A DNA stretch of 64,000 bases. It comes from Agitococcus lubricus (GTDB lineage: Bacteria > Pseudomonadota > Gammaproteobacteria > Pseudomonadales > Moraxellaceae). Shown piece by piece: positions 17,046 to 57,872 of this stretch (position 1 is its first letter; every line of letters starts with the position of its first letter). The DNA lies in contig NZ_QAON01000016.1 of assembly GCF_003051055.1 (NCBI RefSeq), positions 1-64,000 of the forward strand. The letters run 5' to 3'. The translations under genes were made by a program, and so were the position numbers. Under the pieces are notes generated by a model. That model was not told the DNA's origin. It did not search any database and saw nothing but the letters and a program-made list of their open reading frames with translations.

Positions 17046-17421
17046 AAATGTCTCTCCTAGAGTGACGATACTATAAGAATATCTAGTCGAACTGAAAATG
17101 GATTACTAGCATGATTAGGGGTATTTTTAGTATTTTATTTGTATTTTCGTGACTCAGAGAATGAGACAATCATTATTAATAATACATACTTTAGACAGAA
17201 GGCAGTTAATTCAGAAATGATTTTTTGTCTAGAATCAGCGCAATATAGGTTCTATCTAGGACTCTAGTCTAATAACTTTTCTGCAAAGTTTTGAATGTGA
17301 TTGATTGATATCTGATACCATTAACTGGCATAGATGATTTTTAGGACGTATTATCAGCTACTAACTAAAGGTAGGGTATGGAAGAACTATTATAAAACTA
17401 TAACTATAAAGAGGTTTAAGT
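17046..17421. other. AT-rich non-coding stretch upstream of the START gene and 3' of 6S RNA
   Basis: About 375 bp between the START gene and the 3' end of 6S RNA. No convincing ORF, tRNA or strong terminator was seen. It should hold the START gene's promoter near its left end and the 3' trailer of the 6S transcript at its right end. Confidence 0.5.
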
Positions 17422-17613
17422 TACTCCAGAATGCCGCTATCCATCGAGACCCTTGAACCCAGAGGTTCAAGGTGGAAACGAGCTTGAAACATTAGGCTTT
17501 CTGAACCAGAGGTCTTGCGACTTAGCAGACATGCTCACCGCGACAAAGCGTCATTTCCGTAAAAGAAAATATCGGCTCAGGGGACGTGACAGATTGGCGT
17601 ACATCCTAGAGAT
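17422..17613 (-). ncRNA. ssrS: 6S RNA
   Basis: Read on the minus strand, this segment carries the highly conserved 6S blocks. These are GTCCCCTGAGCCGATATTTT near the 5' side, GGTGAGCATG in the middle, and CCTTGAACCTCTGGGTTCAAGGG with GCGGCATTCTGG on the 3' side. The two ends pair to form the closing stem. 6S RNA mimics an open promoter and sequesters the housekeeping RNA polymerase in stationary phase. It lies just downstream of zapA on the same strand, the classical zapA-ssrS arrangement; the usual following gene (formyltetrahydrofolate cyclo-ligase) is absent. The 5' end is placed from the promoter and is approximate; the 3' end is estimated from pairing. Confidence 0.95.
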
Positions 17614-17619
17614 GACTTT

Positions 17620-50695: not shown

Positions 50696-52225
50696 ATGTT
50701 ATTAACCAATAAAGTTTCGTTGTTGCGTCAGGCTTTAGATGAAGCAAATAGCTATGCCGAATGGAAAGAAATAGCCTTAGAACTAGATGCGGTTAGCGGT
50801 TTAGATTTGTGGAAGCTAGATAATGCCTCAGAGCACTATAATCATGAGCTCATTCGTGACCGTCTGATGCAATTGCGTCAACTGATTCGTCAAAAAGATA
50901 ATCGCCAATTGATGCGCGCCCTACGTGAGGGCTTGTACCACGACATCGGTAATATTGGTAATCCTTTACTCTATACCTATGCTCATGTTGGGACGAAACG
51001 ACTGATTGAAGATTATATTGAACAGGTCTGTGTCGCACTCAATTATCTCTGTGATACCGAGTTAGAGTTCTTGTCTTTAGAACAAAAACACCGTTTTTTT
51101 GAAGATACCTTCCATAGTTATGGTCAACCTGCATTAATGTTATCGGGTGGGGCAACCTTAGGGTTGTTTCATGTCGGTGTATGTAAGGCACTACATGAAC
51201 AAAATTTACTGCCTAAAGTCATTTCTGGGTCAAGCGCAGGTTCTTTAGTGACAGGTATGCTCGGCACACATACCGACGAAGAGTTGGTAAAAATGTATGA
51301 TGGTGATGGTTTTTATCATCATGCATGGACATGGAAGCGTTTACGTGATGGCATATTAGGCCAAGGTTTTGCCGACCAACGTCAACTCGAGTCTTTTGTG
51401 CGCAACAACATTGGTGAGTATACCTTTGAAGAGGCGTTTGCCAAAACAGGTCGTCATATCAATGTGACCGTTTCGCCGTTACAAGCACATAAAGCACGGT
51501 TGATGAATGAGCTAACGTCTCCTTATTTATTGGTCTGGAGTGCCGCTTTGGCCTCGTGTGCAGTCCCTGTTTTATTTCCAGCAGTGACGTTAACCACTAA
51601 AAATCATCACGGTGAATATCATCCTTATATGCCAAGCGAGCGTTGGGTAGATGGCTCTGTACGTAGTGACTTGCCACGTCAGCGTTTAGCCCGTTTATTT
51701 AACGTCAACTATTTTATTGCGAGTCAAGTTAATCCGCATATCGTGCCCTTTATGCAATCGGACAAAGAACGTTTACAAAAAGGTAAACTGAGTTCATGGC
51801 CAAAACGCATTGTCCGCTCACAGTTACAAATGGTGGGTATGGGGGTGTTTGATTTTATGCGTGAGCGCACCAGTATTGAGACTCTACGTCAACTGATGGA
51901 CCATGGGTATGGCATCATTGGCCAACGCTATTATGGTGATGTGACAATTGTTGCAAAATATACTTGGCGGCATTACGCATGTATGCTACAAAACCCAACA
52001 GACGAAATGTTAATGTGGTTTAGAATCCAAGGTGAACGCATTACATGGCCAAAAATTGCGATGATTCAAACACATGCGCGTATTGGTCAAACCCTAGATC
52101 AATGTTTGCACCGACTCAATCAGCAGCGCCAGCAATTAGACGAACAACGACGTGCAAACGTCATTCATTTACAAACGCGTAAACGCCATACAGCGCAAAT
52201 TGGCCAAATTGCCAATTTAGACTGA
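50696..52225 (+). CDS. Patatin-like phospholipase with DUF3336 N-terminus
   Basis: This 509-residue lipid hydrolase carries an N-terminal DUF3336 region (residues 1-140) of the type seen in triacylglycerol-lipase-like patatins. The core follows: oxyanion motif GGATLGLFHVGV (151-162), nucleophile elbow GSSAGS with S180, and the dyad Asp D319 in WVDGSVRSDLP. No signal peptide is seen. The C-terminal quarter is basic and Gln-rich. Family members hydrolyse triacylglycerols or phospholipids; the substrate here is inferred. A Ser/Thr kinase gene starts 30 bp later, so they are likely co-transcribed. Confidence 0.92.
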   Translation: MLLTNKVSLLRQALDEANSYAEWKEIALELDAVSGLDLWKLDNASEHYNHELIRDRLMQLRQLIRQKDNRQLMRALREGLYHDIGNIGNPLLYTYAHVGTKRLIEDYIEQVCVALNYLCDTELEFLSLEQKHRFFEDTFHSYGQPALMLSGGATLGLFHVGVCKALHEQNLLPKVISGSSAGSLVTGMLGTHTDEELVKMYDGDGFYHHAWTWKRLRDGILGQGFADQRQLESFVRNNIGEYTFEEAFAKTGRHINVTVSPLQAHKARLMNELTSPYLLVWSAALASCAVPVLFPAVTLTTKNHHGEYHPYMPSERWVDGSVRSDLPRQRLARLFNVNYFIASQVNPHIVPFMQSDKERLQKGKLSSWPKRIVRSQLQMVGMGVFDFMRERTSIETLRQLMDHGYGIIGQRYYGDVTIVAKYTWRHYACMLQNPTDEMLMWFRIQGERITWPKIAMIQTHARIGQTLDQCLHRLNQQRQQLDEQRRANVIHLQTRKRHTAQIGQIANLD

Positions 52226-52255
52226 GCGTTTTAATAAGGTTATTTTTTTGACATT

Positions 52256-53572
52256 ATGAGTATTCAGATTCCCGGCTACACAATTATCAGAGAGTTAGGT
52301 CGTGGTGGTATGGCGACCGTCTACCTAGCCATTCAAGAGTCTTTTGGTCGACAAGTGGCTCTTAAAGTCATGGCGCCGCACTTAGCTGCTGAATCTGGAT
52401 TCCCTGAGCGTTTTGATAGTGAGGCCAAAATGGTGGCCTCACTATCACATCCTCATATTGTCACTGTTTATGACGTTGGTTCGTTTAATAATTATCACTA
52501 CTTGGCCATGGAGTACCATACAGGCGGAGATTTGAGTGAGCGTATTGACCGTCAAGATATTACCCCCAACAATGCACTACGCATTACGAAACAATTAGCT
52601 GATGCCTTAGGTTTGGCACACTCTAAAGGGGTGGTGCACCGAGACATTAAACCTGACAACGTGCTATTTAGAGCGCATAACGACGATGCTATTTTAACGG
52701 ACTTTGGTATTGCCCGAAATATGCAAGCGGAGAGTCATTTAACGCAAGTCGGCTCTACGGTGGGTACACCGAAATACATGAGTCCCGAACAAGCACGAGG
52801 CATGAAAGTAGATGGTCGTGCTGACTTATATAGTTTAGGTGTGATGCTTTATGAAATGCTGGTCGGTAAACCACCATTTAGTGCAACGGATACCATTGCA
52901 CTCGCGATTAAACACTGCCAAGAGCCTGTCCCGCGTTTACCAGACCACTTGCATCGTTATCAACAATTATTAGACCGTTTACTGGCTAAAGAAGTCAAAA
53001 ATCGCTTTCAAAATGGCGTTGAAGTCATGGTGGCGATAGATAATTTCTTAAAAGCACCAGCACAGCAAGCAGTTGTTGTTCCGTCGAGTTCTGCAGATAC
53101 ACCCGTACCAGCGACTCAAGAGCCGCATATTCCTTCTGTATCGGCTTATGGTCGTCCAAGTCCTGGTTTTTCTTTAGATACCCATACCAAAAAAAGTACG
53201 TATGAGCCTTTTTTTAAGGCCAGCGAAACCATAGGTGGAAATTTTTTATTTAAGAAGTATGGCTATAAAATTGACTTCTCTTGTGATGACTATGAAGAGT
53301 TCAAGGAAAAACGTGAGCAAATGCATGAGTTGCTGCAAGATTGGTTAGATAAACGCGGTAAAAAAGCAACAGACTTAGATATTTCTATTCAGGCACATCC
53401 GTGGATTCATGGCCGTATCTGGGAAGCCCTAAGCGATGACCAACCTTATGACAGTCCTTTCGGTTTATTGTTAGAGCAAGCAACGGTCAATCTACATGTT
53501 TATGACGAAGTAGAACCAGAAGGCAAACGCTTAATGTTGCGAGACAAAGGAAAAAAAGTCCCGAAGTCCTAA
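52256..53572 (+). CDS. Soluble eukaryotic-type Ser/Thr protein kinase
   Basis: This 438-residue kinase has a Gly loop GRGGMATVY, ATP-binding K37 (VALKVM), catalytic loop HRDIKPDNVLF (D130), DFG at 149-151 and activation segment GTPKYMSPEQARG. A flexible Pro/Ser linker (about 275-320) leads to a C-terminal domain of about 110 residues, starting ETIGGNFLFKKYGY and containing the charged segment EEFKEKREQMHELL, which I do not recognise. No transmembrane or PASTA segment is present, unlike PknB. It follows the patatin gene closely. Confidence 0.92.
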   Translation: MSIQIPGYTIIRELGRGGMATVYLAIQESFGRQVALKVMAPHLAAESGFPERFDSEAKMVASLSHPHIVTVYDVGSFNNYHYLAMEYHTGGDLSERIDRQDITPNNALRITKQLADALGLAHSKGVVHRDIKPDNVLFRAHNDDAILTDFGIARNMQAESHLTQVGSTVGTPKYMSPEQARGMKVDGRADLYSLGVMLYEMLVGKPPFSATDTIALAIKHCQEPVPRLPDHLHRYQQLLDRLLAKEVKNRFQNGVEVMVAIDNFLKAPAQQAVVVPSSSADTPVPATQEPHIPSVSAYGRPSPGFSLDTHTKKSTYEPFFKASETIGGNFLFKKYGYKIDFSCDDYEEFKEKREQMHELLQDWLDKRGKKATDLDISIQAHPWIHGRIWEALSDDQPYDSPFGLLLEQATVNLHVYDEVEPEGKRLMLRDKGKKVPKS

Positions 53573-53598
53573 TGTGAGCATCTGGCATGAACCCTGTT

Positions 53599-53626
53599 AA
53601 AACCCTTTTTGTAAAGGGTTTTTTTT
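53599..53626 (+). terminator. Intrinsic terminator of the Ser/Thr kinase gene
   Basis: AACCCTTT (53601-53608) pairs with AAAGGGTT (53613-53620) across a TTGT loop, extended by flanking A-T pairs, followed by a run of T. It isolates the patatin-kinase pair from nasT. Confidence 0.9.
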
Positions 53627-53673
53627 CGCCAATTTCCTGCCATAGTGCCGACTGATGACTAAATTGATAGTGA

Positions 53674-53689
53674 TGGCATAGAAATTGCC
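53674..53689 (+). promoter_or_regulatory. Probable sigma-54 promoter of nasT
   Basis: TGGCAT-N5-TTGCC (GG at 53675-53676, GC at 53687-53688, exact 10-bp spacing) lies 37 bp before the nasT ATG. It differs from consensus at two flanking bases. Confidence 0.6.
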
Positions 53690-53725
53690 TGTAGCCTGAC
53701 ATTATTGAGCGGGAGTAGGGCTACT

Positions 53726-54301
53726 ATGTTAAGAGTCCTGTTAGTAAATGATACCAATAAACAGGTTGGCCGATTGCGGGCAGCATTGATGCAAGCAGGA
53801 TGTGATGTCGTTGAAGAGGTTACGTCAGCTTTGATGATTCCTAAAAAAGTAGCCGACCTCAAGGCAGATGTCGTGATTATTGATACCGACTCACCAAGCC
53901 GAGATGTGTTGGAGCAAATTTGTGTGGTCAGTCAAGATGCGCCTAAACCGATAGTGATGGTCAGTGAAGACACTCAACCGGCGGCGATTAAAGCGGCGAT
54001 TAAAGCAGGCGTTTCTGCTTATGTGGTTGAAGATATTGACCCACAGCGTTTAAGTGCAGTATTGGATATTGCTCAAGCACGTTTTGAGCAAGACCAAGCC
54101 TTGATGCAACAAATTAGACAAGCCGAATCGAAATTAAATGAACGTAAAGTCGTAGAACGTGCAAAGGGCTTATTGATGCAATTACGCAATATGACCGAAG
54201 CAGAGGCTTATCATGCGATGCGTAAAATGGCGATGGACCGTAATATCCGCATTATTGATGTTGCGCAAAAGTTACTATCTATGAATGATTTATTGACCTA
54301 A
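53726..54301 (+). CDS. nasT: ANTAR-domain antiterminator NasT
   Basis: NasT binds a two-hairpin RNA leader to prevent termination, normally held in check by nitrate sensor NasS. The 191-residue protein has a pseudo-receiver (1-120, VLLVNDTNKQVGRLRAAL, VVIIDTDSPS) and a C-terminal ANTAR helical bundle (KLNERKVVERAKGLLMQLRNMTEAEAYHAMRK). The ATG at 53726 follows a GGGAG ribosome binding site. The gene lies immediately upstream of the nrt leader it probably controls. No nasS gene is adjacent, which is unusual. Confidence 0.9.
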   Translation: MLRVLLVNDTNKQVGRLRAALMQAGCDVVEEVTSALMIPKKVADLKADVVIIDTDSPSRDVLEQICVVSQDAPKPIVMVSEDTQPAAIKAAIKAGVSAYVVEDIDPQRLSAVLDIAQARFEQDQALMQQIRQAESKLNERKVVERAKGLLMQLRNMTEAEAYHAMRKMAMDRNIRIIDVAQKLLSMNDLLT

Positions 54302-54325
54302 GCCTATCAGTCAACAACATAGATA

Positions 54326-54349
54326 AACCGCCTACAAGGCGGTTTTTTT
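54326..54349 (+). terminator. Intrinsic terminator of nasT
   Basis: AACCGCCT (54326-54333) and AGGCGGTT (54337-54344) form an 8-bp stem with ACA loop, followed by TTTTT. It separates nasT from the nrt promoter. Confidence 0.92.
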
Positions 54350-54426
54350 ATGGCGCTATTTGCGGTAGCAACCACGATGGAGGCTACTCAAAAAGCTATC
54401 TGCCTCATTTTGGACAACATAAATTA

Positions 54427-54501
54427 TGCACCAATAGCTGTCAGCCCCATAAAAATATGCACCATTCACGATATTGGTGCAAAACATGCACTTAAATGGT
54501 G
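54427..54501 (+). promoter_or_regulatory. NtrC-type half-site array upstream of nrt
   Basis: TGCACCA occurs at 54427-54433 and 54458-54464, the inverted TGGTGCA at 54475-54481, and a full NtrC-like site TGCACT-TAAAT-GGTG at 54487-54501. NtrC's consensus is TGCACY-N5-GGTGCA. The last site lies about 32 bp before the sigma-54 -24 element, closer than usual, but the array as a whole is at enhancer distance. Confidence 0.7.
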
Positions 54502-54532
54502 AAAAATACTTTTTTGAGATGTTTTGTGAAGT

Positions 54533-54548
54533 TGGCACAAGGGTTGCA
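54533..54548 (+). promoter_or_regulatory. Sigma-54 promoter of the nrt operon
   Basis: TGGCAC-AAGGG-TTGCA matches the sigma-54 consensus TGGCAC-N5-TTGCW completely. Transcription should begin near 54559, giving a leader of about 248 nt before nrtA. Confidence 0.9.
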
Positions 54549-54558
54549 ATATATTTAG

Positions 54559-54691
54559 CGAGAGCGCTCCTTTGGCCAATGTTGGCTTATACGCTTTCCG
54601 ATACTTAATAACCCGCTCCTTATTAGGTATCCGAAACTTGGTTGGGACAATGGCGTCCAGATGCTTAATTGCTGAAGGACGCCTTTTTTTT
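54559..54691 (+). ncRNA. nrt leader with ANTAR-type hairpins and attenuator
   Basis: Two short hairpins each present a hexaloop with A at position 1 and G at position 4, the ANTAR-target rule. P1 is GGCC-AATGTT-GGCT (54574-54587) and P2 is GGAC-AATGGC-GTCC (54645-54658). Between them a 12-bp stem (54600-54611 with 54620-54631, one G-T pair) may bring them together. The 3' arm of P2 is part of the terminator's 5' arm, so NasT stabilising P2 would block termination. The P1-P2 distance is longer than in the cases I know. Confidence 0.75.
54652..54691 (+). terminator. Attenuator terminator in the nrt leader
   Basis: GGCGTCC (54652-54658) pairs with GGACGCC (54677-54683), followed by eight T residues. 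It is mutually exclusive with hairpin P2 and lies 116 bp before the nrtA ATG. Confidence 0.88.
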
Positions 54692-54806
54692 GCCTTTTTT
54701 TTACCAAAATTGAACTTATTCGGTTTTTTGTCGCTTGTTGGCACTGTGTTTGTATAGTGTAGACAGGGAAAAATCCTGAGTAAGTTCACCGAGATTGAGG
54801 TTCATC

Positions 54807-56105
54807 ATGGTGCATTTACCAAACGAAGAAACAAACTTAATTTTAACGAATGATACTGTCCCCCAAGTCCAACAAAGTCGTCGTGATTTTTTGAAACAAT
54901 CGGCAGTGGCAGCGGGGGCAGGCTTAATGGGAGGCGGAATGATGAGCTTGTCCACCAGTGCATGGGCTGCGGGTAGTGATAAACCAGAAAAAACCGAAGT
55001 GAAAGTGGGGTTTATTCCCTTAACGGATTGTGCACCGATTGTGGTGGCCTCCGTATTAGGTTTTGACAAAAAATACGGCATCAAAATTACACCCAGCAAA
55101 GAAGCCTCATGGGCAGGCGTACGCGATAAGCTCTTAAATGGCGAGTTAGATGCTGCCCATGTATTGTATGGTTTAATTTATGGCGTACAGTTAGGTATTG
55201 GTAGTACAGCGAAAGACATGGCTGTTTTGATGACGCTCAACCAAAATGGTCAAGCCATTACGCTCTCGAATCAATTAAAAGAGCAGGGGGTTGTCGATGG
55301 TAAATCACTCAAACGGATGATTGATTCCAATAAACGCGAATACACGTTTGCGCAAACCTTCCCAACAGGCACACATGCGATGTGGTTATATTATTGGCTA
55401 GCTGCTTATGGTATTGACCCTATGAACGATGTCAAAACCATCGTGGTGCCACCGCCACAAATGGTCGCCAATATGCGCGTGGGTAATATGGACGGTTATT
55501 GCGTGGGTGAACCTTGGGGAGCGCGTGCGATTAGTGATGGTATTGGTTTTACAACGGCAACGACGCAAGAAATTTGGCCAAATCATCCCGAAAAAGTCTT
55601 GGGTTGTACCAAAGCCTTTATTACACAATATCCCAATACCGCACGCGCCATGTTAATGGCGGTACTAGAAGCCAGTCGTTATATTGACGACATCAAAAAT
55701 CGTCCTGCGGTGGCCAAGTTAATTGCAGACAAATCCTATGTGAATGCACCAGAGCAAGTGATTGAACAACGCTTCTTGGGTAATTATGACAACGGTATTG
55801 GTCGTAAATGGAAAGATACAAACCCGATGCAGTTTTATCGCAATGGTGAAGTGTCCTTCCCTTACTTATCTGATGGCATGTGGTTCTTAACGCAACATAA
55901 GCGTTGGGGTTTGTTAAAGAAAGAGGTGGATTATTTAGCGGTGGCTAAGTCCATCAACCAAATTGATATGTATAAAGAAGCCGCTAGCCAAATTGGTGTA
56001 CCTGTACCTAGCAGCCCGATGCGTAGCAGTAAACTCATTGATGGCAAAGTATGGGATGGTTCTAATCCTAAAGCTTATGCCGCTAGTTTTGCCATTAAAG
56101 TCTAA
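54807..56105 (+). CDS. nrtA: Nitrate/nitrite ABC transporter substrate-binding protein
   Basis: This is a 432-residue NrtA/CmpA-family binding protein. A Tat signal lies at residues 24-60 (SRRDFLKQ, then a hydrophobic AGAGLMGGGMMSLS and AWA cleavage site). The body begins VKVGFIPLTDCAPIVVAS, typical of the family. Conserved segments are EASWAGVRDKL, THAMWLYYWLAAYGIDP and GYCVGEPWGARA. A TTG-started extension (54795) is not preferred because the ATG at 54807 has a GAGG site. NasS is a cytosolic relative of NrtA, but this copy has an export signal, so it should be the transporter component. Confidence 0.93.
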   Translation: MVHLPNEETNLILTNDTVPQVQQSRRDFLKQSAVAAGAGLMGGGMMSLSTSAWAAGSDKPEKTEVKVGFIPLTDCAPIVVASVLGFDKKYGIKITPSKEASWAGVRDKLLNGELDAAHVLYGLIYGVQLGIGSTAKDMAVLMTLNQNGQAITLSNQLKEQGVVDGKSLKRMIDSNKREYTFAQTFPTGTHAMWLYYWLAAYGIDPMNDVKTIVVPPPQMVANMRVGNMDGYCVGEPWGARAISDGIGFTTATTQEIWPNHPEKVLGCTKAFITQYPNTARAMLMAVLEASRYIDDIKNRPAVAKLIADKSYVNAPEQVIEQRFLGNYDNGIGRKWKDTNPMQFYRNGEVSFPYLSDGMWFLTQHKRWGLLKKEVDYLAVAKSINQIDMYKEAASQIGVPVPSSPMRSSKLIDGKVWDGSNPKAYAASFAIKV

Positions 56106-56116
56106 GGAGTACCATC

Positions 56117-56971
56117 ATGAGTTTAGTGACAACCACTGTGAGTGCGACCACCAGTAGCAAAAAAGCAGAGGCGAAGTTTCAAATGCCTGCCCTCATGGTA
56201 AAGCCTGCGGCTGTTGTGCGTTGGGCTTTTCCACCAATGTTAGGGATTGCTTTATTTATCTTTGCATGGGCGATTTTGCATCATTTTCGCCCCGAGTTAC
56301 CAGGCCCTGTGAGTACATGGGCATCAGCAGTAGCGTTATTTTCTGACCCCTTTTATAACAATGGACCTAACGACCAAGGTATTGGTTGGAACATTCTTAA
56401 CTCTTTAGGGCGCGTGGGCTTAGGCTTTGGCTTAGCCGCGTTGATTGGGATTCCCTTAGGTTTTATCTTGGGACGTGTGCAATTTATTAACCAAATGTTT
56501 GCACCTATCATTTCTTTACTCAGACCTGTGTCGCCATTGGCATGGTTGCCTATTGGTTTGTTAGTATTTAAGTCGGCTGAGCCAGCCTCGATTTGGGTGA
56601 TTTTTATCTCCAGTATTTGGCCGATTATTTTGAATACAGCGGCTGGCGTGTCACAAGTTCCGCAAGACTATTTGAATGTTGCACGGGTGTTGCGCTTATC
56701 CGAATGGAAAGTGTTTACCACTATCTTGTTTCCATCCAGTTTGCCTTATTTATTGACGGGTATCCGCCTCTCGATTGGTGTTGCTTGGTTAGTAATTGTC
56801 GCGGCTGAAATGTTAACAGGGGGGGTTGGCTTGGGCTTTTGGGTGTGGGATGAGTGGAACAATCTCAACGTCGAACACATTTTGATTGCAATCTTTGTGG
56901 TGGGTATTGTCGGCTTACTGTTAGAGCAAGCCTTACTATTACTCGCCAAACGCTTCTCTTACGACGCTTAA
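56117..56971 (+). CDS. nrtB: Nitrate/nitrite ABC transporter permease
   Basis: This 284-residue integral membrane protein has six predicted helices. It carries the permease EAA-type motif near residues 190-215 (VPQDYLNVARVLRLSEWKVF) and LGRVGLGFGLAALIGIPLGF. The final VAAEMLTGGVGLGFWVWDEWNN is typical of NrtB/SsuC-type permeases. It lies 11 bp after nrtA. Confidence 0.94.
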   Translation: MSLVTTTVSATTSSKKAEAKFQMPALMVKPAAVVRWAFPPMLGIALFIFAWAILHHFRPELPGPVSTWASAVALFSDPFYNNGPNDQGIGWNILNSLGRVGLGFGLAALIGIPLGFILGRVQFINQMFAPIISLLRPVSPLAWLPIGLLVFKSAEPASIWVIFISSIWPIILNTAAGVSQVPQDYLNVARVLRLSEWKVFTTILFPSSLPYLLTGIRLSIGVAWLVIVAAEMLTGGVGLGFWVWDEWNNLNVEHILIAIFVVGIVGLLLEQALLLLAKRFSYDA

Positions 56972-57002: not shown

Positions 57003-57030
57003 CCCATACCTCTGTTTTAGGAGGTATTGG
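57003..57030 (+). repeat. Intercistronic hairpin between nrtB and the ATPase gene
   Basis: CCC-ATACCTC (57003-57012) can pair with GAGGTAT-TGGG (57021-57031) around a TGTTTTAG loop, with one bulge. No T tract follows. Such hairpins between operon genes often stabilise or segment mRNA. Confidence 0.55.
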
Positions 57031-57080
57031 GAGCGGCTTGCCTAAAAAAGCCATACCCACAGCATAGCTCGAGGTGTACG

Positions 57081-57872
57081 ATGAACAAGTATGTAAATAT
57101 TGAAAATGTCGCCATGCGTTTTGAAACCAAAAAAGGAACGTTTGAAGCGTTGCGTGACATCAATTTGACCATTGCCGAAGGCGAGTTTGTCTCGTTAATT
57201 GGCCATTCTGGATGTGGCAAATCAACCTTGTTGAATTTAATTGCAGGTCTGACTTTGCCCAGTGACGGTTATTTGTTTTGTAATGGCCGTGAGATTGCAG
57301 GACCTGGCCCTGACCGTGGTGTTGTCTTCCAAAATCATTCATTATTACCGTGGTTGACCTGTTTTGATAATGTTTATTTAGCCGTTGAACGGGTGTTTGG
57401 CGATAAAGAAACGAAAAAACAATTACAAGAGCGTACCCATGCCGCCTTAAAGCTGGTCGGCTTGACGCATGCAACGCACAAATATCCCAAAGAGATTTCG
57501 GGTGGTATGAAACAACGGGTAGGTATTGCCCGCGCCTTAGCGATGAAACCACAGGTGTTGTTGATGGATGAACCCTTTGGTGCCTTAGATGCACTCACAC
57601 GTGCACATCTACAAGATGAGTTACTAAAAATTGTTGCAGATACTAAAGCAACCGTCGTCATGGTCACCCATGATGTGGATGAAGCCGTCTTATTGTCAGA
57701 CCGTATTGTGATGATGACCAATGGCCCTTCGGCGACGATTGGCGAGATTCTCACCGTCGATTTGGCAAAACCACGAGACCGTATGCAGTTAGCTAACGAC
57801 GCGCATTATCACCATTTACGTTCGGTCGTCTTAGAGTTCTTATACAAAAAGCACTTACGACCCGCCGCTTAA
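57081..57872 (+). CDS. nrtD: Nitrate/nitrite ABC transporter ATPase
   Basis: This 263-residue ABC ATPase has Walker [14 protein letters not shown] loop [11 protein letters not shown], signature [14 protein letters not shown], Walker [17 protein letters not shown] and H loop [10 protein letters not shown]. It is a single-domain NrtD/NasD-type subunit, not the NrtC fusion with a binding domain. The ATG at 57081 has a GAGGTG ribosome binding site; the ORF upstream of it is only an open extension. Confidence 0.94.

What the first reader, a model, noticed from the sequence alone, without database searches (positions are those of the whole stretch)
54427..54806. Two-layer nitrogen control of nrt: NtrC sites and sigma-54 promoter feeding an ANTAR attenuator leader
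A consensus sigma-54 promoter (TGGCAC-N5-TTGCA) with upstream NtrC-type sites starts a leader containing two A1/G4 hexaloop hairpins and a terminator that shares bases with the second hairpin. This matches the NasT/NasR mechanism, but the P1-P2 distance (57 nt, bridged by a 12-bp hairpin) is atypical. Seen bases strongly imply antitermination on top of nitrogen limitation.
Basis: partly seen in the sequence, partly recalled or inferred. Interest (0 to 1): 0.75.

Follow-up and report, generated by a model that had tools for sequence, protein, structure and literature searches.

The report
Nitrate-gated leader of nrt transporter operon
This is a two-step switch in front of nitrate-uptake genes: nitrogen shortage starts the message, and an RNA-binding protein (NasT) probably lets it run past a built-in stop signal when nitrate is present; the scheme is known from other bacteria, but here the two binding hairpins are held apart by an extra hairpin and the usual nitrate-sensor partner gene appears to be missing.

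Summary
Upstream of nrtABC in a Moraxellaceae-like genome lie two NtrC-like dyads (54465, 54487), a consensus sigma-54 promoter (54533-54548), and a leader with two A1/G4 hexaloop hairpins (54574-54587, 54645-54658). The second shares bases with an intrinsic terminator (54652-54691). nasT, the genome's only ANTAR gene, lies just upstream; ntrC and rpoN are present. The module is conserved in four relatives. In 74 sigma-54 leaders before nrtA, 53 have an early 6-nt-loop hairpin; loop letters 1 and 4 are A and G in 51 each, found without requiring those letters. The plan matches K. oxytoca nasF and the Pseudomonas nirB/P11 leader. The 57-nt hairpin-bridged linker breaks the EutV rule (5-12 nt) but is not unique: 21 of 55 scored leaders have gaps of 24-89 nt, and many Pseudomonas-type nir leaders carry three hexaloops. 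The window fits a three-hairpin leader whose middle hairpin lacks the recognition loop. No NasS gene was found in this genome or its relatives, so what gates NasT is open. All evidence is sequence-based. Verdict: known mechanism in a spaced variant, moderate interest.

The parts
53726..54301 (+). nasT: receiver-like plus ANTAR domain protein, the likely RNA-binding antiterminator; only ANTAR gene in the genome
   Evidence: Pfam ANTAR 68.9 bits; single ANTAR hit in the genome; 84-91% identical in four relatives
54325..54349 (+). intrinsic terminator after nasT
54465..54481 (+). NtrC-like dyad TTCACGATATTGGTGCA, centre about -86
   Evidence: kept in G002 and G003
54487..54503 (+). NtrC-like dyad TGCACTTAAATGGTGAA, centre about -64
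   Evidence: same place in G014 and G001
54533..54548 (+). sigma-54 promoter TGGCACAAGGGTTGCA; predicted start 54559
   Evidence: conserved in four relatives
54574..54587 (+). P1 hexaloop hairpin GGCC-AAUGUU-GGCU (A1, G4)
   Evidence: loop letters conserved over 53 leaders
54600..54631 (+). middle 12-bp hairpin with 8-nt loop, no A1/G4 hexaloop
   Evidence: linker z -3.59, -9.9 kcal/mol; a middle hairpin of different sequence in relatives
54645..54658 (+). P2 hexaloop hairpin GGAC-AAUGGC-GUCC (A1, G4)
   Evidence: near-invariant in relatives
54652..54691 (+). leader terminator GGCGUCC...GGACGCC-U8, exclusive with P2
   Evidence: pattern found in 18 of 391 Pseudomonadales genomes, none for the reversed control pattern
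54807..56105 (+). nrtA, Tat-type nitrate-binding protein
   Evidence: PF13379 363 bits and TAT signal
56117..56971 (+). nrtB, nitrate ABC permease
   Evidence: TIGR01183 over cut-off
57027..57872 (+). nrtC/D-type nitrate ABC ATPase
   Evidence: TIGR01184 over cut-off

Best explanation
This is a sigma-54/NtrC-driven, NasT-type antitermination leader of the nrtABC nitrate-uptake operon. Under nitrogen limitation, phosphorylated NtrC bound at about -64 and -86 activates sigma-54 RNA polymerase at 54533-54548 (inferred from sites and genes). The transcript from about 54559 folds into P1, a middle spacer hairpin, and then either P2 or the terminator, which cannot coexist. By default the stronger terminator wins and a leader RNA of about 130 nt is released. 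Active NasT binds the A1/G4 hexaloops, first P1 and then P2, holds P2 before the terminator's 3' arm pairs, and polymerase reads into nrtABC. The leader belongs to a three-hairpin layout: in many related leaders the middle hairpin is also a hexaloop; here it has no recognition loop and probably brings P1 near P2. Shown: sequence features, mutual exclusion on paper, conservation. Inferred: start site, NtrC and NasT binding, readthrough, the nitrate signal, the spacer's role.
For: Unique sigma-54 match; dyads at conserved positions and enriched over 73 nrtA promoters, 18 with up to 3 mismatches against 0.8 expected; ntrC and rpoN present; nasT adjacent here and in most nrtA loci examined; P1 and P2 conserved in relatives; loop A1 and G4 in 51 of 53 hairpins each, found without asking for them, against 3 of 34 in control sequence having both; terminator -15.4 against P2 -4.0 kcal/mol, and P2 the local fold before the 3' arm is made; sub-threshold match to Rfam P11, E 8.7e-4. 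EutV and NasR bind such loops (PMC3369931, PMC7496416).
Against: The linker is 57 nt, whereas EutV fails with 14 nt or with 20 nt added (PMC3369931, PMC8934654). NasS was not found. The P11 match is below the Rfam gathering score. P1 has only 4 pairs, and its fold with a 4-nt loop is slightly favoured over the hexaloop. No expression or binding data.
Confidence: 0.86

Rival explanations
1. Only P2 matters: NasT binds the single P2 hexaloop, and P1 with the middle hairpin is a stable 5' end or a remnant of a three-hexaloop leader.
For: The EutV structure redefines the minimal site as one hexaloop (PMC8934654); the linker far exceeds the EutV limit; some leaders in the set showed no upstream hexaloop.
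Against: P1 loop letters and 5' position are strongly conserved; P1 is nearly identical in the five close relatives.
Confidence: 0.25
2. The leader is a plain attenuator or sRNA source, and nrt is expressed from another promoter after the terminator.
For: 115 bases separate terminator and nrtA start; the homologous Pseudomonas P11 is known as a small RNA (PMC12080996).
Against: No sigma-70-like promoter found on the + strand at 54300-54820; sigma-54 promoter and leader are conserved together before nrtA.
Confidence: 0.06
3. The hexaloops are chance hairpins and the region is an ordinary sigma-54 promoter with a terminator.
For: Short stems with A..G.. loops arise by chance (3 of 34 control hairpins).
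Against: Conservation over Beta- and Gammaproteobacteria at the same place relative to promoter and gene; leader fold z -3.46.
Confidence: 0.03

Closest known systems
Pseudomonas nirBD leader / sRNA P11 (Rfam RF00625), NasS-NasT controlled
   Same: Sigma-54 promoter, 5' hexaloop, P2 GGAC-ANNGGC-GUCC overlapping a GGCGUCC/GGACGCC terminator.
   Different: Stands before nir rather than nrt; most such leaders have three hexaloops with a short last linker; Pseudomonas genomes tested carry NasS, this genome does not.
Klebsiella oxytoca nasF leader with NasR
   Same: Ntr control of initiation plus antitermination on nitrate at a two-hexaloop leader (PMC5424462, PMC7496416).
   Different: NasR carries its own NIT nitrate sensor; the regulator here is NasT, and no NIT protein was found, though that search had no positive control.
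Enterococcus faecalis eut leaders with EutV
   Same: P1/P2 hexaloops with A1 and G4, P2 exclusive with the terminator (PMC3369931).
   Different: eut linkers are 5-12 nt and length-sensitive; here 57 nt with a hairpin inside.
Paracoccus denitrificans nasA leader with NasS-NasT
   Same: NasT gene upstream, leader hairpins needed for nitrate growth, NtrC input (PMC5424462).
   Different: The NtrC site there is at nasT; here NtrC-like sites and the sigma-54 promoter stand directly before the leader; no NasS found here.

Membership tests
ANTAR-target (NasT-type) antitermination leader | Two hairpins with 6-nt loops carrying A1 and G4 | tested here: met
ANTAR-target (NasT-type) antitermination leader | Second hairpin mutually exclusive with an intrinsic terminator | tested here: met
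   Shared bases 54652-54658
ANTAR-target (NasT-type) antitermination leader | Cognate ANTAR regulator encoded in the genome | tested here: met
   nasT adjacent, single ANTAR hit
ANTAR-target leader of the EutV type | Short linker (5-12 nt) between the hairpins | tested here: not met
   57 nt; limit from PMC3369931
ANTAR-target (NasT-type) antitermination leader | NasT binding and nitrate-dependent readthrough | not testable with these tools
   needs binding and transcription assays
NasS-NasT two-component system | NasS, a cytoplasmic NrtA-like sensor, present | tested here: not met
   one strong PF13379 hit (nrtA) and one weak SsuA-like in G000; same in relatives, two of them incomplete; Pseudomonas shows two strong hits
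Rfam RF00625 (P11) | Score at or above the gathering cut-off (70 bits) | tested here: not met
   26.3 bits, E 8.7e-4
NtrC/sigma-54 promoter | -24/-12 element with upstream NtrC dyads, and ntrC and rpoN in the genome | tested here: met
   activity itself not tested

The most novel reading that the evidence does not exclude
NasT in this lineage (and in several NasS-less betaproteobacteria) responds to nitrate without NasS, for example through Tat-exported NrtA, which would fold in the cytoplasm before export and could hold NasT as NasS does; the spacer-hairpin leader would be the RNA side of this variant.
Probability: 0.1. Interest if true: 0.75.

Novelty: new variant of a known kind. Interest (0 to 1): 0.4.

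Why it matters
It indicates that the strict short-linker rule derived from EutV does not describe nitrate leaders: gaps of 24-89 nt, often bridged by a hairpin, and three-hexaloop forms are common, so motif searches built on a short linker would miss them. It also raises a testable question: how NasT is gated where NasS is absent.

Tried and rejected
Reading TGCACCA-N10-TGGTGCA (54458-54481) as one NtrC dyad: rejected for wrong spacing; the two 3-base-gap dyads are better. The 54427 element as an NtrC site: chance level, 5 mismatches. Rfam gathering search: no hit here, only 6S elsewhere; the other weak Rfam hits in the leader look like chance. A closer P1 next to P2: none in the window. A long-range pairing of 54563-54571 with the terminator 3' arm appears when P1 and P2 are forced, but its UCCUU is not kept in G002 or G014, so no claim is made. 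NIT-domain search found nothing but had no positive control. The papers on the A. vinelandii leader and on P11 in nitrogen assimilation were not held, and the P. aeruginosa nirBD leader paper was seen only in reference lists, so I cannot say whether three-hexaloop leaders are already described there.

Full report
WHAT IS THERE. The window lies in a 3.74 Mb, 99.8% complete genome. Its closest named nrtA matches are two Moraxellaceae MAGs, hence 'Moraxellaceae-like'; the genus is not known to me. Gene order is nasT (53726-54301), terminator, nrt leader, nrtA, nrtB, nrtC, porin-like gene. The sigma-54 element at 54533-54548 is the window's only exact match to TGGCAC-N5-TTGCA, with 0.10 expected. 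Two NtrC-type dyads stand at about -86 and -64 and are the only matches within three mismatches in 64 kb. About four would be expected by chance, so the count proves nothing; but both fall within 100 bases of the promoter, and relatives keep a dyad at -85 or -64. Over 73 nrtA promoters, 18 have a dyad within three mismatches against 0.8 expected. The genome has ntrC and rpoN.

THE LEADER. From the predicted start 54559 come P1 (54574-54587), a 12-bp hairpin (54600-54631), P2 (54645-54658) and the terminator (54652-54691). P2's 3' arm and half its loop are the terminator's 5' arm, so the two exclude each other. The terminator hairpin alone (-15.4 kcal/mol) beats P2 alone (-4.0), and before the terminator's 3' arm is made P2 is the predicted local fold. 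Without help the leader should therefore terminate.

IS IT MORE THAN CHANCE. Four relatives share nasT, promoter, P1, P2 and nrtA. I then took 80 nrtA loci from named genomes. Of 85 upstream regions, 64 gave a sigma-54 element followed by a hexaloop overlapping a terminator-like hairpin; in about six of these the script took an upstream hexaloop for P2, so the number is approximate. A test that asked for no loop letter found a 6-nt-loop hairpin near the 5' end in 53 of 74 leaders. Position 1 is A in 51 and position 4 is G in 51, while stems vary widely; in upstream control sequence 3 of 34 hairpins have both. This is the EutV/NasR recognition signature (PMC3369931, PMC7496416). The sequences are related, so these counts are not independent trials. 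Rfam's Pseudomonas P11 model also finds the leader, well below its own threshold.

THE LONG LINKER. In E. faecalis eut leaders the linker is 5-12 nt, and 3 or 14 nt cut induction drastically (PMC3369931); 20 extra nt abolished antitermination in vitro (PMC8934654). The window has 57 nt. Measured from the last upstream hexaloop to P2, 34 of 55 leaders have 2-19 nt and 21 have 24-89 nt. The long linkers fold more stably than length-matched upstream controls (mean z -1.61 against -0.21, Mann-Whitney p 5e-4), but not in every species. Fifteen leaders have two or more upstream hexaloops. Among the 18 other loci found with the P2/terminator pattern, mostly from one unnamed Pseudomonadales family, 11 have three hexaloops in all. 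The simplest account is a three-hairpin leader whose middle hairpin is either a hexaloop or a plain spacer; the window has the spacer form. Relatives keep a middle hairpin of different sequence: its base reads GAUAC/GUAUC here, GAUGC/GCAUC in G003 and GAUGU/GCAUC in G014; in G002 and G014 the linker fold is not better than shuffles. That the spacer brings P1 near P2 is inference.

THE SENSOR. NasT is normally held by NasS, a cytoplasmic NrtA relative (PMC3795266). The four Pseudomonas genomes tested have two strong NrtA-family hits each, and in L064 an NrtA-like reading frame lies directly before nasT. This genome and its four relatives have one strong hit, plus at most a weak SsuA-like protein; two of the relatives are only 74-88% complete. 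Of ten other genomes reached, eight have one strong hit; Herbaspirillum RV1423 and Uliginosibacterium have a second at 286-297 bits. NasT therefore seems to work without NasS here, and what gates it is unknown. In P. denitrificans loss of NasS makes expression constitutive (PMC3795266), so nitrate-independent readthrough here is also possible. NrtA as a stand-in sensor is speculation.

CONTEXT. Two-layer control by Ntr plus antitermination is established for Klebsiella nasF and described for NasS-NasT systems (PMC5424462). A 2025 survey lists nitrate-transporter genes and ANTAR genes among sigma-54 targets (PMC12316311). The finding is a sound example of a known mechanism, with a spacing that departs from EutV but is shared by many nrt leaders. 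No step has been tested in the laboratory for this organism.

Noticed in passing
whole genome G000; relatives G001-G003, G014: No NasS found although NasT is present; same in several betaproteobacteria, unlike the Pseudomonas genomes tested.
   Followed up: partly
L123 9690-10140 (G000 contig C15, nas/nirB locus): Divergent sigma-54-like elements (9930 -, 10103 +) serve a nas-nirB operon and an MFS transporter gene. The nas leader has a hexaloop UUAGC-AACGUG-GCUAA whose 5' flank AUCCUUUAGC matches that of P1 in G003; its 3' arm may overlap a weak terminator-like hairpin.
   Followed up: partly
L099-L115: Most Pseudomonas-type nir leaders found carry three A1/G4 hexaloops before or within the terminator; in a few the middle one is lost.
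   Followed up: partly
window 50696-54301; L124: A patatin-like gene, a Ser/Thr kinase gene and nasT stand in the same order in G014, another genus; whether the kinase acts on NasT is unknown.
   Followed up: no
window 54636-54658: The single-stranded stretch before P2, UGGUUGGGACA, is invariant in the close relatives, more so than the middle hairpin.
   Followed up: no
window 17419-17615 (-): 6S RNA gene, 94.5 bits.
   Followed up: no
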